A DNA stretch of 64,000 nucleotides from Phycisphaerae bacterium (GCA_016782865.1 JADHXR010000006.1:1-64000), one strand, 5' to 3'. Counted from the first letter of the stretch, positions 50,616 through 56,100 are shown. Notes: generated by a model from the sequence alone, not told the origin. Made by a program: numbers and translations.

Positions 50616-51934
50616 ACCTCCGGATAGACCCAGGGTTTTCGATATTCGCGGCGGAGCAATTGGTTTGCCGCGGCGTCACCTACTATCACTTCTCTTTCGG
50701 CGTCCCATTCGACGCTGCGGCCGATCTTTAGCGACAGCATGCCCAGCAGGCTCATGGTCGTCGAGCGGTGGATCAGCTCGATATCGCAAACGGGCCGCGT
50801 GCGCATCTTGATGGCTTTGAGCAGGTCCACCCACAATTCCAGGATGTTCTGATCGTCCGGCTTGTTCAACCTCGGTTCCTCGTGGATGACCTTCTGTCCC
50901 CTGCCGGTCGGATAGAAATTCCAGCCGTCATGCCAGGCCATGTGGAAGGTGCCCTTGGTGCCGTAGAAGTAGCAGCCGACGTTTTCGCCCTTCTCTGCGT
51001 TGTTGGCCCCGAACTTGCGATGCTCCCAGACCGCGGTGAAATCGTCGAACTTGAAGCTAACGACCTGGTGATCGGGAGCGTCGGTTGTCTGCCCTCTGGC
51101 GTCATTGACCGGCGGACCTGAGATGGCGCGACCGCCCGTTGAGAAGACGCACCTGGGGTATGCCTCTCTGGCCCACCAGAGGATTTGATCCATCCAGTGT
51201 ATGCCCCAGTCACCCAGTGTGCCGTTGCCGTAGTCGAGGAATTGGCGGAAACCCTTGGGATGGATCTTCGTGTTGAACGGACGCTTCGGCCCGGGCCCGC
51301 ACCACATGTCCCAGTCCAGCCCCTGTGGCGGCTCCTGATTCTGCCTGGGGCTCTCCGGCCCGCCTCCGGAATGCACGAACGCGCGGACCATGCCGATCTT
51401 GCCGGCCCCGCCTTCCCAGAGAAACTTCATGCCCGAAACATTGTGCGGCGATATCCGCCGGTGCGTACCGACCTGAACGACCCGCCCGGCTGCACGAGCG
51501 GCGTTGACCATCGCCCGGCCTTCCTTGATCGTGTGGCATATCGGTTTTTCCACGTAAACGTGCGCGCCGGCCTTGACCGCCGCGATAGTGATCAGCGGAT
51601 GCCAGTGATCGGGCGTACCCACGATAGCAATGTCCGGCTTCTCGGCGTCCAGAAGCTCTCGATAGTCCTTGTACTTCTTGGGCTTGTCGCCGCTAAGCTT
51701 CTCGATTTCCGCCGCGGCGGGATTCAATTGATTAGTATCGACATCGCACATGGCGACTATCCTGCACTCGCCCGATTGCAGAGCCGCCCGGGCGATGTTC
51801 ATGCCCCACCAGCCGCTGCCGATGAGGGCCGTGCGGTACTTCCTGCCGCTGTCGGCTCGGATGATATTAGGGGCCGCCAGCGCCAGGCCCGACGCCATCG
51901 AGTGTTTGAGGAAGGTGCGACGATCTATTGCCAT
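50612..51934 (-). CDS. TAT-exported Gfo/Idh/MocA-family oxidoreductase
   Basis: 440 residues. The N-terminus RRTFLKHSMASGLALAAPNI is a twin-arginine signal. GSGWWGMNIARAAL is the NAD(P)-binding Rossmann motif, VGTPDHWHPLITIAAVKAG and VYVEKPICHTIKEG contain the EKP lysine used by the family, and a C-terminal GFO_IDH_MocA domain holds DWGIHWMDQILWW. Planctomycetes carry many such exported copies, generally tied to sugar metabolism, with substrates unknown. AGGAAT precedes the ATG. Its start faces the tyrosine recombinase gene 63 bp away. Confidence 0.9.
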   Translation of the reverse strand: MAIDRRTFLKHSMASGLALAAPNIIRADSGRKYRTALIGSGWWGMNIARAALQSGECRIVAMCDVDTNQLNPAAAEIEKLSGDKPKKYKDYRELLDAEKPDIAIVGTPDHWHPLITIAAVKAGAHVYVEKPICHTIKEGRAMVNAARAAGRVVQVGTHRRISPHNVSGMKFLWEGGAGKIGMVRAFVHSGGGPESPRQNQEPPQGLDWDMWCGPGPKRPFNTKIHPKGFRQFLDYGNGTLGDWGIHWMDQILWWAREAYPRCVFSTGGRAISGPPVNDARGQTTDAPDHQVVSFKFDDFTAVWEHRKFGANNAEKGENVGCYFYGTKGTFHMAWHDGWNFYPTGRGQKVIHEEPRLNKPDDQNILELWVDLLKAIKMRTRPVCDIELIHRSTTMSLLGMLSLKIGRSVEWDAEREVIVGDAAANQLLRREYRKPWVYPEV

Positions 51935-51997
51935 GGTAAGATTCCTTTAGCCGATACTTAGTCACTATTTTGACTTAGTGTACCAGGAAATTGACCG

Positions 51998-52846
51998 ATG
52001 AGAAGAAAAAGTGAGAAAATGAGAAAAAATAATTTGGAAATTTGCGAGCACGTCGATGCGTGGTTGCATTTTTGTGCCAGGACGTATTCAACTCGCACCA
52101 CCGAAGCATATAGCGGCACGATAAATCAGCTTCTGCGATTTTTATCGGCGAACGAATTATCGTTTTCGACGGAAACGGTCGAGGCGTGGCTTGACTACAA
52201 ACTGGAAAATGGCGCGAGCCGTTCGTCGTGGAATTCATGGCTCGTACACATTCGCTCGTTTTGCGCCTGGCGTAAGAAAAGATACGGAGTCCCATCAGTA
52301 GTTCATGGAAAAATCACACGGATTCGCCAGGACCCGCCTCACAGACGGATGATTACGAAAAAAGAATATGGTATGTTGCTCGCTGCGACGTCGGGAATTT
52401 CTAACGATATAATCAGATTCTTAGCAAACACTGGCATTCGCAAAGATGAGTTTCGTCGATTGACGTGGGGCGCTATGAAGAAAGATCGGCTGCACATCGT
52501 TGGAAAAGGTCGTAAGTTTCGCGTCGTGCCGTTAAACAGCTCAGCGAGGACAGTTATATCGCATTATCTGCGTGGCGACGACGACGATCCATTTCCGCCG
52601 AGTATTTTGTACGAATCGCGAGAAGGCTGCTCGTTTTTGATTCGCAAGACTTGCAGAAGAATCGGCATTGAGCGAGCGGGCTCACATTCGTGCCGCAGAT
52701 TCTTTGCCACCCAATGCCCAGAAAATGGAATGCCTATGCCCGTCCTCCAACGTATATTAGGCCATAGCGACATTTCTACAACGATGCAATACGTTCGGCT
52801 CAGCGACGAAGCGTTGATTGGCGCCACTGAATGTCTTGTCGGATAG
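51998..52846 (+). CDS. Tyrosine recombinase (XerC/D-like) heading a module array
   Basis: 282 residues, complete. Residues about 10-95 form a SAM-like core-binding domain (FCARTYSTRTTEAYSGTINQ). The catalytic set is intact: R in NTGIRKDEFRRL, K in VGKGRKFRVVPL, HSCRRF for HxxR, LGHSDISTTMQYV with the second His and the tyrosine nucleophile. It is shorter than integron IntI proteins (about 320) and I see no extra IntI-type patch before the HxxR box. AGGAAA lies 9 bases before ATG 51998; ATG 52019 is possible. Thirteen bp after the stop begins the first of three 27-bp palindromic sites, which makes it the likely enzyme acting on them. Confidence 0.9.
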   Translation: MRRKSEKMRKNNLEICEHVDAWLHFCARTYSTRTTEAYSGTINQLLRFLSANELSFSTETVEAWLDYKLENGASRSSWNSWLVHIRSFCAWRKKRYGVPSVVHGKITRIRQDPPHRRMITKKEYGMLLAATSGISNDIIRFLANTGIRKDEFRRLTWGAMKKDRLHIVGKGRKFRVVPLNSSARTVISHYLRGDDDDPFPPSILYESREGCSFLIRKTCRRIGIERAGSHSCRRFFATQCPENGMPMPVLQRILGHSDISTTMQYVRLSDEALIGATECLVG

Positions 52847-52858
52847 TGACGCAGAATC

Positions 52859-52885
52859 GTAAACATACTACATTAGTATGTTTAC
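52859..52885. other. Palindromic recombination-like site A
   Basis: GTAAACATACT, spacer acatt, AGTATGTTTAC: perfect 11-bp arms around 5 bp, the geometry of tyrosine-recombinase core sites. It lies 13 bp after the recombinase stop. The same arms recur at sites B (53972) and C (55241). Confidence 0.7.
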
Positions 52886-52958
52886 TGTTTGTGTTGTGAG
52901 GCGATTGACGGGCGTCGTTCGTCGTTCGTCCTCGTCCTTTATTGTCGCGGCTGTGGCT

Positions 52959-53234
52959 TCAACGGTTGCTCTTGCTATTAGGCGGCAGACCCTGGCTAGA
53001 TTGGGCTGTACGACGCGCCGTACCTGTTTTAACCACAATTGTTTGTTCATTATCTCCGTTATGTATTGTCCCAAAGAACGCATCGAACTTCACCGTATTC
53101 TTTGTGACCAATAGATTGCCTTCGCCATCATAAGCTATGTTTGTGACAAAAGGCCCGGCATTGGTACAGCCGACAACAAACATGAGAGCAGCCAACAGAC
53201 AGCCAAACAATACATTCTGAATTCTTGATTTCAT
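52959..53234 (-). CDS. Small lipoprotein in module 1
   Basis: 91 residues. MKSRIQNVLFGCLLAALMFVVGC is (in outline) a lipoprotein signal with Cys at about 23. The mature part starts TNAGPFVTNIAYDGEGNLLV, and two short beta strands are likely. GAAAGGG precedes the ATG at 53234. It is transcribed toward the recombinase gene, like all ORFs of the array. Not recognised. Confidence 0.65.
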   Translation of the reverse strand: MKSRIQNVLFGCLLAALMFVVGCTNAGPFVTNIAYDGEGNLLVTKNTVKFDAFFGTIHNGDNEQTIVVKTGTARRTAQSSQGLPPNSKSNR

Positions 53235-53271
53235 CGTAAAACCCTTTCAAATAACTTTTCTAAAATTATGT

Positions 53272-53322
53272 GACGAGCGTCGTGCGTTCTGGCGCTTGTG
53301 ATAAATCTACACGACGCTCGTC
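53272..53322. repeat. 13-bp inverted repeat within module 1
   Basis: GACGAGCGTCGTG (53272-53284) and CACGACGCTCGTC (53310-53322) pair perfectly around 25 bases. It sits between the two ORFs of module 1, with no U tract on either strand. It could be a transcription terminator or a structured recombination site, but integron core motifs are absent. Confidence 0.5.
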
Positions 53323-53419
53323 GAGGTGCGAAAACTAATCAGGATTCTTTGTCTTTCGGATCGCCATCGAGCTATCCTATGCAATCATTGCGGAAAGACT
53401 CTCCTTCTTCTTCTATCTC

Positions 53420-53836
53420 TTACCCTCTTTCCTTCTTCTCCGCTTCTTTTTCCATATTCTCAACACACGTTTTCAGACGTTTGAAACAGTCCCTAATCGC
53501 ATCTATTCCCTTTTGGCCAATATACGCAAGTACGTCTATATCGTTATCTCTTTCGAATTCTAGCGGCAATTTATAAATCTGAGGCACCTCAGTTGAAAAT
53601 TTATGTTCTGTTCGAATGTCTTCAAGGCCCTTCTTGCAGGCTTCTAGGTCATGAAGTGTATCCCTGATAGGTGGGCTAAGGGGAGTGGGACATATCTTGT
53701 CAAAGCATTTGCGGAGTTCGTCGAGTTCATCTTTTATCCTCTCAGTTTTTTTAGGAAAACTCTTAGGCAGACCTTCGAAGAATTCATCACTAAAAAACTC
53801 TCCTGCCATTTTAGGTGGTTTTTGTTCCGCACACAT
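53420..53836 (-). CDS. Hypothetical 138-residue protein in module 1
   Basis: Starts MCAEQKPPKMAGEFF at ATG 53836 with GGGAGACG 5 bases upstream; the longer frame to 53911 would include the leader. The protein is charged and largely helical (KSFPKKTERIKDELDELRK, DTLHDLEACKKGLEDI, AEKKERG tail), with coiled-coil potential and no signal peptide. Not recognised. Its leader and first codons are almost the same as those of the 54638 gene, an unrelated protein. Confidence 0.65.
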   Translation of the reverse strand: MCAEQKPPKMAGEFFSDEFFEGLPKSFPKKTERIKDELDELRKCFDKICPTPLSPPIRDTLHDLEACKKGLEDIRTEHKFSTEVPQIYKLPLEFERDNDIDVLAYIGQKGIDAIRDCFKRLKTCVENMEKEAEKKERG

Positions 53837-53875
53837 AATTCGTCTCCCTATGCTTGAATATGGTTTCCACGAAAT
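53820..53875 (-). promoter_or_regulatory. Shared array leader, copy 1
   Basis: From about 53875 to the first codons of the 53420 gene: GGAAACCATATTCAAGCATAG, then GGGAGACGAATT, then ATGTGTGCGGAACAAA. Almost identical to 54956-55013 and related to 54518-54552. It contains the ribosome site and probably the promoter. Confidence 0.6.
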
Positions 53876-53926
53876 CAGACAGTTGCAATTCACTATCGGC
53901 TTATTCTTCACGCCGCTTTATTGGGT

Positions 53927-54037
53927 TTATGCTGGTTTTCAGTGGTTCGACGCCTGGTGTCATTGCAAAGTGTAAACATACTGACTGAGTATGTTTACAA
54001 AAAGCCAGAAAATCATGCGTCGGACCACCGAAAAGCC
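53927..54037. other. Palindromic recombination-like site B with extended arms
   Basis: Core at 53972-53998: GTAAACATACT, spacer gactg, AGTATGTTTAC. Outside it, GGTTTTCAGTGGTTCGACGC (53934-53953) is inverted at 54017-54037 as the complement of GGCTTTTCGGTGGTCCGACGC. The left flank from 53927 matches the left flank of site C over about 56 bp, so B and C are in direct orientation. Confidence 0.7.
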
Positions 54038-54047
54038 AAACAATCGC

Positions 54048-54185
54048 CTAACGCAGCTTCTTGCATTGCTTGCACAGGCGTTTACCACCTGTGCCTTGCC
54101 GACGATTCTTCGTTTCGATGTTGTTCCCTACTGTACAATTACGGTTGTCATGATACACCTCTGAGTCCTTAGCGTGCCAGGCCAT
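54048..54185 (-). CDS. 45-residue zinc-knuckle-like protein in module 2
   Basis: ATG 54185 has AAAGGAG 7 bases upstream. The sequence contains VYHDNRNC, then GNNIETKNRRQGTGGKRLC and KQC: one His and three Cys arranged H-x4-C...CxxC. The H.N..C...GNNIE...R.GTGGKRLC..C pattern is one I associate with a small conserved bacterial protein of unknown role. The upstream extension to 54269 is rejected for lack of a ribosome site. Confidence 0.7.
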   Translation of the reverse strand: MAWHAKDSEVYHDNRNCTVGNNIETKNRRQGTGGKRLCKQCKKLR

Positions 54186-54259
54186 TGGCTTCTCCTTTGA
54201 AATCTCAAGTTCCATTTGACAACGTTTCGACGTTCGACGGGATGTTGATGAAACTGAAC

Positions 54260-54520
54260 CTAAAACCAAGATTGTTCTTGGCAGTAATCCGTGCCTCTGT
54301 CAGTAAGACTATAGAGTTTTGTGTGAAAATTTGTCGAATATTCACCAGAGATCATCTTCATGGTTTTCTCCAGTTTATGAATGCGACAGTCGATATCATT
54401 CTCGCTAAAATTAGTTCTGAGGCGGTTGAAGATAATGCCTATCGCGAGCGCCGTGCGTGTAGCACGCTCCCAAAGGAGTTTAAGTATAGCTTTATCCAGT
54501 TCTATTAGATTCTCACACAT
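54260..54520 (-). CDS. Hypothetical 86-residue protein in module 2
   Basis: Starts MCENLIELDKAILKLLWERA at ATG 54520 with GGGAGACG upstream. Likely all-helical with a winged-helix flavour: TALAIGIIFNRLRTNF, DIDCRIHKLEKTMKM, then a YSLTDRGTDY strand-turn typical of PadR-like or wHTH wings. A DNA-binding role is a guess. The leader resembles those of the two other array genes. It precedes the 45-residue gene in the same direction. Confidence 0.6.
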   Translation of the reverse strand: MCENLIELDKAILKLLWERATRTALAIGIIFNRLRTNFSENDIDCRIHKLEKTMKMISGEYSTNFHTKLYSLTDRGTDYCQEQSWF

Positions 54521-54552
54521 AATCCGTCTCCCTACTATACCATTATATCGCC
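54518..54552 (-). promoter_or_regulatory. Shared array leader, copy 2 (divergent)
   Basis: GATATAATGGTATAGTAGGG, then AGACGGATT, then ATGTGTGAG. TATAAT is a plausible -10 box. Less similar to copies 1 and 3 than these are to each other. Confidence 0.5.
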
Positions 54553-54637
54553 GATGGCCCGTCGTCATTTCAAACGTCGTTCGATGAAGCCTGGTTACAT
54601 TCAAAGGCGGGCGTCGAGATGTTGCGAAATGCTAAGC

Positions 54638-54970
54638 CTACTTCGCATCTTTTCTTGGATACGTTCCTGGAAATACACGCGGCTCGCCTCTTGACTCAGT
54701 AAGACGCCAGTCTGTCCTCATCCTCATGTCGCGATCAAGTTCTTGACCAAGCAATACGTCTAGTTCACCACTGATAAACCCGGCTTCATGCAGTTCCTCA
54801 ATCGCGGCTTTGATTTCTTCTTCCGTAAAACGATTATTCGCCAGCAAGGGTTCGTAGATTCCATTTTCCGCGTGCAGCACATATTTCATACTCACGCGAT
54901 TCTTACTCTCGCGATAGAGATCAAGTATAGCCTCTGCTGCTTCTAATAGTGTTATTTGTTCCGCACACAT
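54638..54970 (-). CDS. Hypothetical 110-residue protein in module 2
   Basis: Starts MCAEQITLLEAAEAILDLYRE at ATG 54970. A predicted helical domain follows with a winged-helix-like run: NRFTEEEIKAAIEELHEAGF and ISGELDVLLGQEL. The C-terminal RMRTDWRLTESRGEPRVF is polar. Not recognised. The first five codons and about 45 bases of leader are shared with the 53420 gene, although the proteins are otherwise unrelated. Confidence 0.65.
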   Translation of the reverse strand: MCAEQITLLEAAEAILDLYRESKNRVSMKYVLHAENGIYEPLLANNRFTEEEIKAAIEELHEAGFISGELDVLLGQELDRDMRMRTDWRLTESRGEPRVFPGTYPRKDAK

Positions 54971-55013
54971 AATTCGTCTCCCAACTATGCTTTAATATAG
55001 TTTCCGCGAAATT
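54956..55013 (-). promoter_or_regulatory. Shared array leader, copy 3
   Basis: GGAAACTATATTAAAGCATAG, TT, GGGAGACGAATT, ATGTGTGCGGAACAAA. TATATT may be the -10 box. Close match to copy 1 at 53820-53875. Confidence 0.6.
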
Positions 55014-55069
55014 CGTGCCGTTGCTGTTTCGCTCCTCTTATTAAAGAACAAGAATATACTATTGCGTGA

Positions 55070-55100
55070 TTGGTGGCGAGACGTGATGTTTCGCCACCAA
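55070..55100. repeat. 10-bp inverted repeat upstream of array leader 3
   Basis: TTGGTGGCGA and TCGCCACCAA, perfect, 11-bp loop. The 54971-55388 gap otherwise holds site C and no gene. Confidence 0.5.
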
Positions 55101-55195
55101 ATCGCGATTGCCGCAACAAGCGGCGGAGCTAACGGCTAACACCGTTAATGCATTTCTCTCATCATCGACTCATTTCTCGCGGTGATTCACTGGAA

Positions 55196-55267
55196 TTATG
55201 CTGGTTTTCAGTGGTCCGACGTCTGGTGCCATTGCAAAACGTAAACATACTTATCGACTATGACGAC
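55196..55267. other. Recombination-like site C (right arm decayed)
   Basis: GTAAACATACT (55241-55251), spacer tatcg, then ACTATGACGAC, 7 of 11 matches to the expected arm. The 45 bp left of it match the left flank of site B nearly base for base (GCTGGTTTTCAGTGGTCCGA). It is the outer end of the visible array. Confidence 0.6.
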
Positions 55268-55388
55268 GAACGAAAAGGGACGTGCGATCTTGATTGTTTG
55301 ATGCGGTTTTTATAGGAACTAATTAGCAATAAATAAAAACACGCTTTCTGCGCGAATAACGGCCTGTGAATGTAACGTAACGTTCATT

Positions 55389-55583
55389 TTACGGGACGTT
55401 GTGGTCGTTACCTTTCCCAATTGGGATTATTAGTACAGCCCTACCAACAGCGACCCCAACTTCCTGATCCGTCCATTTACTCCCATTAAATTTTGGTGTA
55501 AGAATCACTGCGAGAGCATCCATAGCGAACAGCGCCTTCTCTATTTCATCCTGCCATTCCTTATACGCTGCAATCGTATGGTC
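55389..55583 (-). pseudogene. TIR-domain fragment
   Basis: The frame contains YKEWQDEIEKALFAMDALAV, ILTPKFNGSKWTDQEVGVAV and GRAVLIIPIGKG, the middle and second half of a TIR_2-type domain. The N-terminal strand and its catalytic-loop region are missing; the sequence upstream of 55583 is dispersed repeat. The C-terminus stops at GNDHNVP, where family members continue. Both ends are therefore lost. TIR proteins often act in NAD-depleting anti-phage systems; this copy is presumably dead. Confidence 0.65.
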
Positions 55584-55800
55584 CTTCCCGCTCGAACGCA
55601 GATTCCTCCGCTGCGTCCCGATTTCATCGGGACTCCGGTCGGAATGACGGCGTGAGATCCTGCCATATCCGGCGCGGACAAGTGTTCCCAATTTTCATTT
55701 CCAGCGCGGACTTCTACTCCCAAGTGTCATTTCGAGCGGAGCGAAGCCTTAAGCCCTGAGCGGAGTCGATGGGGAAGTCGAGAAATCTGGCTCACTTGCT
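55584..55800. repeat. Dispersed repeats abutting the TIR fragment
   Basis: Contains CCCGATTTCATCGGG (hairpin) followed by GGTCGGAATGACGG, and TCATTTCGAGCGGAGCGAAG...GTCGAGAAATCT, both of the usual intergenic filler types. It replaces the 5' half of the TIR gene. Confidence 0.55.
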
Positions 55801-55803
55801 ACA

Positions 55804-56100
55804 TCAACCGTACCAGCCGTCACTGAGGTCACGCCAGTCGGGATTATCCTGAGCGATCAGTCGCAGCTTCTTATCGCGGCGCCAGCGTTTGATCTGCTTT
55901 TCTCTGGCGATGCCCGAGAATGCATGGCGGAAGGACTCAACGTAGACCAGCGTATCGATGTTGTAGCGGCCTGTGAAGCCTTCGACAAGTTCGGCTTTGT
56001 GCTGTTGCACTCTTCTCTCGATATTGTCAGTGAATCCAACGTACAGCGTGCGCGACTGGTTGGCCATGATGTAGACGTAGTAGATTCTGTCCGCAAACAT
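55804..56100 (-). CDS. GIY-YIG nuclease-domain protein
   Basis: 98 residues. YYVYIMANQSRTLYVGFT is the GIY-YIG motif region, with the conserved Arg (NIERRVQQHK), the Glu strand (LVYVESF) and the family ending AIAREKQIKRWRR-like, DNPDWRDL. This is the small stand-alone YhbQ/UPF0213-like branch, some members of which act on DNA. ATG 56100 has no ribosome site, but TATAAT lies 6 bases before it, so a leaderless transcript is possible. Confidence 0.85.
   Translation of the reverse strand: MFADRIYYVYIMANQSRTLYVGFTDNIERRVQQHKAELVEGFTGRYNIDTLVYVESFRHAFSGIAREKQIKRWRRDKKLRLIAQDNPDWRDLSDGWYG

What the first reader, a model, noticed from the sequence alone, without database searches (positions are those of the whole stretch)
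51998..55267. Tyrosine recombinase followed by palindromic core sites that bound modules of small genes
The recombinase has a full catalytic set. Thirteen bp after its stop lies GTAAACATACT-acatt-AGTATGTTTAC. The same arms recur at 53972 (spacer gactg) and, with one decayed arm, at 55241 (spacer tatcg). An 11-5-11 layout with variable centres is the geometry of tyrosine-recombinase core sites. Sites B and C also share about 56 bp of left flank in the same orientation. Between sites lie modules of 1.1 and 1.3 kb holding two and three short unrelated ORFs, all pointing toward the recombinase. Integron hallmarks (IntI insert, attC RYYYAAC/GTTRRRY cores) were not found, so this resembles a dif-module or cassette array with its own recombinase. 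That it moves modules is inference.
Basis: partly seen in the sequence, partly recalled or inferred. Interest (0 to 1): 0.88.

Follow-up and report, generated by a model that had tools for sequence, protein, structure and literature searches.

The report
Recombinase beside palindrome-bounded gene modules
A phage-type recombinase gene is followed by three copies of a palindromic site that separate blocks of small genes, which looks like a tiny home-made gene-cassette array, but no second copy or rearranged version was found anywhere, so movement is unproven.

Summary
A complete tyrosine recombinase (51998-52846) is followed after 12 bp by GTAAACATACT-acatt-AGTATGTTTAC (A). The same arms recur at 53972 (B, gactg) and, with a 7/11 right arm, at 55241 (C, tatcg). 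The site occurs nowhere else in the 7.25-Mb genome or in IMG/VR, and not in other genomes of the order apart from one 3-mismatch match.

Module 2 is bounded by an inverted 17-mer at the same distance from the core at both ends. Three module genes share a start leader while their bodies are unrelated or nearly so. The three spacers differ, so there is no target duplication. The recombinase belongs to a phage/prophage integrase subfamily.

An 11-5-11 site with a free 5-bp centre is the published geometry of the Tn1549 circular junction. Best reading: end-to-end junctions of small modules joined beside an integrase that recognises their ends; the mechanism is inferred. Against it: no relative has such sites beside its recombinase, and 37 bp of the B/C flank resemble a dispersed repeat in four relatives. 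It fails tested integron features. New variant of a known kind, moderate interest.

The parts
51998..52846 (+). Tyrosine recombinase, 282 aa, core-binding and catalytic domains, no arm-binding domain detected
   Evidence: PF00589 4.8e-23, PF02899 3.5e-7; phrog_1 integrase 1e-35; catalytic residues invariant
52859..52885 (.). Site A: GTAAACATACT-acatt-AGTATGTTTAC, 12 bp after the recombinase stop
52959..53234 (-). Module 1 ORF: small putative lipoprotein (91 aa)
   Evidence: no family match
53420..53836 (-). Module 1 ORF MCAEQKPP... (138 aa), no recognised family
53823..53848 (-). Shared leader/start copy 1 (GGGAGACGAATTATGTGTGCGGAACA)
53918..53954 (+). 37-bp flank motif also found in dispersed repeats of relatives
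53936..54034 (.). 99-nt dyad around site B: 17-mers at 53936-53952 and 54018-54034 outside the core palindrome
   Evidence: DNA fold z -6.6
53972..53998 (.). Site B: GTAAACATACT-gactg-AGTATGTTTAC
54048..54209 (-). Module 2 ORF: small Cys/His-rich protein (YHDN..C...LCKQC), homologues in G008, G031, G119
   Evidence: (E 1e-14 to 9e-11)
54260..54520 (-). Module 2 ORF MCENLIEL..., weakly related to MCAEQITLL
54507..54532 (-). Shared leader/start copy 2 (3 mismatches)
54568..54606 (.). Possible decayed B/C-type flank without core, upstream of leader copy 2 (suggestive only)
   Evidence: 2 of 1000 shuffles reach the score against B, 13 of 1000 against C
54638..54970 (-). Module 2 ORF MCAEQITLL... 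(110 aa)
54957..54982 (-). Shared leader/start copy 3
55205..55221 (-). 17-mer subterminal repeat at the right end of module 2, same offset from the core as at 54018-54034
   Evidence: 0 of 100000 shuffles
55241..55267 (.). Site C: GTAAACATACT-tatcg-ACTATGACGAC (right arm 7/11)
55389..55566 (-). Truncated TIR-domain ORF beyond C, also pointing to the recombinase; possible remnant of a third module cut by a dispersed repeat that starts near 55566
   Evidence: PF13676 5.8e-6, partial, just below the curated cut-off; repeat copies in G000

Best explanation
A, B and C are core sites of the adjacent simple tyrosine recombinase (an integrase of phage/prophage type). Each module is a small non-autonomous unit whose two ends carry the 11-bp recombinase-binding arm. 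A and B are end-to-end junctions (arm, 5-bp crossover, arm) and C is an end joined to non-site or decayed DNA. A module circle carrying one such site would insert at a resident site by recombinase action, tolerating different 5-bp centres as Tn916/Tn1549 integrases do, leaving a tandem row beside the recombinase. Shown: sites, uniqueness, shared and inverted module ends, differing spacers, recombinase completeness, integrase kinship. Inferred: binding of the arms by this recombinase, circularisation, insertion, present-day activity.
For: Perfect 11-5-11 palindromes with identical arms, none in shuffles. Sites confined to this locus in 7.25 Mb. A lies 12 bp from the recombinase stop. B/C flank similarity, about 79% over 99 bp, E 5e-17, runs up to the core and ends there. 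Module 2 ends carry an inverted 17-mer at equal offset, 0 of 100000 shuffles. Spacers acatt, gactg, tatcg differ, so no target duplication. Homologues are phage or prophage integrases, one next to tRNA-Leu with a partial tRNA copy 8.9 kb away. Tn1549 circular junctions are two 11-bp AT-rich repeats around 5 bp (PMC5871717).
Against: No homologous recombinase, including the closest (46%, G036), has such sites close by. Only one locus exists, with three sites. No circle, alternative junction or empty site was seen. The left end of module 1 lacks the 17-mer. Part of the flank belongs to a dispersed repeat family in relatives that lacks the core palindrome. The recombinase has no detected arm-binding domain, unlike Tn916-type integrases.
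Confidence: 0.45

Rival explanations
1. Remnant of an ordinary prophage or satellite: attachment sites of a decayed integrative element with accreted cis-mobilisable pieces, no longer active and never a cassette system.
For: Integrase kinship; decayed arm at C; possible decayed flank at 54568-54606; TIR ORF truncated by a repeat; GC 0.41-0.51 against about 0.6 in the neighbouring genes.
Against: Two perfect sites and an intact recombinase suggest recent selection or activity. No phage structural gene was recognised among the ORFs between the recombinase and C.
Confidence: 0.2
2. The module ends are ends of a transposon or MITE family moved by a DDE (rve-type) transposase, abutted with 5 bp between them as in IS dimers or minicircles; the recombinase next door is incidental.
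For: 37 bp of the B/C flank match, at 84-86%, a repeat of about 92 bp present in G001, G036, G073 and G099, in G001 next to an rve_3 transposase ORF. Module 2 has inverted ends.
Against: No equal 5-bp target duplication at either module. The dispersed repeats end differently (TGCGCTTGTCAAGCG) and lack AGTATGTTTAC. The left side of A is the recombinase gene end, with no subterminal motif. No copy elsewhere in G000.
Confidence: 0.15
3. The palindromes are operators of a regulator (possibly a module protein) in a tandemly duplicated promoter-leader region.
For: B and C lie upstream of genes that share a leader and start. Two module proteins are weakly related and one gives sub-threshold hits to transcription regulators. 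AAACATACT-N5-AGTATGTTT occurs as single sites in 32 genome contigs, many from low-GC taxa, with no related recombinase in the fetched DNA.
Against: A lies between convergent genes, with no leader, 12 bp from the recombinase stop. The flank similarity ends at the arms. The 17-mer is inverted at the other end of module 2.
Confidence: 0.13
4. An invertible (phase-variable) segment: the recombinase inverts a module between inverted arms.
For: The arms are palindromic, so A and B could recombine in either orientation; the recombinase is next to the site.
Against: B and C flanks are direct repeats, not inverted, so B x C would be expected to excise. The segments hold several genes, not a promoter switch. 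No inverted isomer is known from the single assembly.
Confidence: 0.05

Closest known systems
Tn1549/Tn916-type circular-intermediate junctions (PMC5871717)
   Same: 11-bp AT-rich inverted repeats around a variable 5-bp crossover; tyrosine recombinase; no target duplication
   Different: The recombinase here has no detected arm-binding domain and is of the simple type; modules are 1.1-1.3 kb without transfer genes; several junctions lie in a row
Cis-mobilisable elements and accretion; modular excision of PAISt (PMC4057263)
   Same: One tyrosine recombinase, several palindromic att sites dividing a region into modules
   Different: PAISt modules are 105 and 569 kb with an 8-bp palindrome in a bacA copy; here they are about 1 kb with differing centres
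Integron cassette arrays
   Same: Recombinase, adjacent site, row of site-bounded small genes
   Different: Integrase far below the IntI cut-off, no attC-type cores, sites are symmetric palindromes, modules share their own 5' leader
dif/pdif modules (XerCD)
   Same: Short site-bounded modules of small genes
   Different: Both arms identical, so one recombinase could suffice; dedicated recombinase adjacent; the dif of this genome is not known
Strand-biased circularising integrative elements (PMC9345347)
   Same: Inverted end motifs joined by a short variable spacer in the circle
   Different: 6-bp spacer, 19-bp imperfect ends, two recombinases in a 7-kb element

Membership tests
Integron | IntI-type integrase | tested here: not met
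   TIGR02249 56 bits against a cut-off of 265
Integron | attC sites with RYYYAAC / GTTRRRY ends | tested here: not met
   No pair with 6 or more complementary positions in 51900-55700, both strands
dif / pdif module | Sites match the chromosomal dif and are used by XerC/XerD | tested here: inconclusive
   Consensus dif not found in G000 or 30 relatives; the recombinase scores below the XerC, XerD and XerA cut-offs
Tn916/Tn1549 family | 11-bp inverted ends with 5-7 bp variable crossover | tested here: met
   PMC5871717
Tn916/Tn1549 family | Integrase with arm-binding domain | tested here: not met
   Only core-binding and catalytic domains found by Pfam
Tn916/Tn1549 family | Conjugation module | tested here: not met
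   No such ORF among those between the recombinase and site C
Phage/prophage integrase | Sequence kinship with integrases of phages or integrated elements | tested here: met
DDE transposon / MITE | Target-site duplication at both ends | tested here: not met
   acatt / gactg / tatcg
Tandem cis-mobilisable elements | Modules excise or circularise by the resident recombinase | not testable with these tools
   No reads available

The most novel reading that the evidence does not exclude
A compact cassette-capture platform that arose independently of integrons: a phage-derived simple tyrosine recombinase with a resident palindromic site, collecting mini-cassettes that bring their own 5' leader, through symmetric 11-bp arms and unmatched 5-bp crossovers in double-stranded form.
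Probability: 0.18. Interest if true: 0.8.

Novelty: new variant of a known kind. Interest (0 to 1): 0.45.

Why it matters
If the modules move, this would be a second, much simpler solution to what integrons do, built from a phage integrase, and a small experimental system for tyrosine recombination with unmatched crossover sequences. If not, it is still a clear example of how tandem accretion beside an integrase can mimic an integron.

Tried and rejected
Close relatives of the recombinase by single-sequence scans of genome and viral contigs: none. The 27-bp site in IMG/VR and in the other genomes of the order: none except one 3-mismatch single site in G113. A relaxed 18-base core in 85k genomes: 32 contigs with single sites, many from low-GC taxa, no related recombinase in the fetched DNA. 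Empty site: the 89%-identical MocA orthologue in G001 shows that homology stops at 51948, but the other side is not syntenic. Module region in phage and plasmid records: no DNA match. AlphaFold of two module proteins: pLDDT about 52, not used. Rfam: nothing credible. attC search negative. A terminator role for A: scored as terminator-like, but B has the same arms and the hairpin of A has only 3 GC pairs, so not adopted. A 12-nt inverted pair near A and B (GTGAGGCGATTG) was dismissed, as pairs that short are expected by chance in 3.6 kb.

Full report
Check of the observation. The recombinase ORF is 51998-52846. Pfam finds the catalytic domain (PF00589, 4.8e-23) and a SAM-like core-binding domain, but no arm-binding domain. 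The six catalytic positions R148, K170, H230, R233, H256 and Y265 are invariant among seven homologues. Twelve bp after the stop stands site A, GTAAACATACT-acatt-AGTATGTTTAC; site B has the same arms with gactg; C keeps the left arm, then tatcg and a right half matching at 7 of 11. Neither A nor B is expected by chance, and no further copy exists in the window or the genome (240 contigs, 7.25 Mb) up to 3 mismatches; in the other 160 genomes of the order there is one single 3-mismatch site, in G113.

Anatomy beyond the finding. B and C share about 100 bp of left flank at 79%, ending at the core. Read outward, the right ends of modules 1 and 2 and the left end of module 2 carry CGTCGGACCACYGAAAA at the same offset from the 11-bp arm (1, 0 and 0 mismatches); the match of the two ends of module 2 was reached by 0 of 100000 shuffles. 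The left end of module 1 lacks it. Around B this makes a 99-nt dyad (DNA fold z -6.6). Three ORFs start from a common leader GGGAGACGRATTATGTGTG. The leader regions next to B and C are about 90% alike over the last 56 bp. The coding bodies are not: MCAEQKPP is not alignable with the others, while MCAEQITLL and MCENLIEL are weakly related. So the 5' ends are alike while the bodies differ, which simple divergence of duplicates does not easily explain (inference). A weak trace of the same flank without core lies at 54568-54606, just upstream of the second leader; module 2 may therefore be two fused units. Beyond C a TIR-domain ORF, also on the minus strand, is cut by a dispersed repeat near 55566.

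The recombinase family. At E below 1e-22 homologues occur in 12 of 161 genomes of the order and 2 of 392 sampled across the phylum, the window's own genome counted in both; six viral contigs carry relatives at 29-33% identity over most of the length. Several genomic ones lie among phage-like genes (by inspection). In G001 the integrase stands beside tRNA-Leu(gag), and a partial tRNA copy lies 8.9 kb away, which marks a normal integrated element. The window gene thus belongs with phage-type integrases of simple architecture. None of the homologues has a palindrome like A next to it; G072 has a long imperfect dyad 504 bp downstream (score 54 against a shuffled maximum of 43, but such dyads occur elsewhere too), and G032 a GC-rich palindrome 47 bp downstream.

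Mechanism. Spacers acatt, gactg and tatcg differ, as expected if modules were joined through unmatched crossovers, and argue against a 5-bp target duplication of either module. The simplest reading is a row of small units recombined end to end beside an integrase that recognises their ends. That the recombinase binds these arms, and that modules still move, is inference.

Counter-evidence. A 37-bp part of the B/C flank matches, at 84-86%, a repeat of about 92 bp in G001, G036, G073 and G099, in G001 next to an rve_3 transposase. These repeats end in TGCGCTTGTCAAGCG and lack the core. The flank may therefore come from an insertion-sequence end or a shared promoter, and the palindromes may mark abutted element ends of another kind. 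The palindromic core alone also occurs as isolated sites in unrelated genomes, so an operator role cannot be excluded, though the position of A speaks against it.

Comparison. Integron membership fails on integrase and attC. dif-module membership could not be decided. Tn916/Tn1549 membership fails on domain architecture although the site geometry is met. It works most like tandem cis-mobilisable elements as in the modular excision of PAISt (PMC4057263), at a much smaller scale and with variable centres. Verdict: real and well described, a probable integrase-associated module row; new variant of a known kind; interest 0.45.

Noticed in passing
L141-L146 (G099, G073, G001, G036): Dispersed repeat of about 92 bp starting with the palindrome CGCTTGTCAAGCG, often preceded outside by CCAG, shared by several genera of the family; 37 bp of it match the window B/C flanks.
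   Followed up: partly
L048, L050, L051 (less clear in L028): Recombinase plus convergent small helix-turn-helix gene, bounded by inverted copies of TTTGCAAAGTGATTA; a compact unit, perhaps int-xis with matched ends.
   Followed up: no
L047:10388-12152: Recombinase homologue followed by a convergent small gene starting MCEL, a long imperfect dyad and a TIR protein matching ThsB (PADLOC 4.5e-38); parallels the window layout including the TIR remnant beyond C.
   Followed up: partly
L026:1877-10771: 8.9-kb element with phage-like genes integrated in tRNA-Leu(gag), carrying a relative of the window recombinase.
   Followed up: partly
window 54048-54209; L061, L062, L063, L064; plasmid hits H16-H19: Small Cys/His-rich protein (YHDN..C...GTGGK.LC..C) scattered on chromosomes, a viral contig and plasmids, mostly unannotated; in G008 it sits in a 2.1-kb insert between direct repeats of about 110 bp.
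   Followed up: partly
L026:16439-16867; upstream of MocA orthologues in G001, G019, G028: Irregular arrays of AAATTGGCTTTGTTTTTTC in intergenic DNA of several relatives.
   Followed up: no
window 55804-56100: GIY-YIG-like ORF next to multi-copy intergenic repeats (55566-55800).
   Followed up: no
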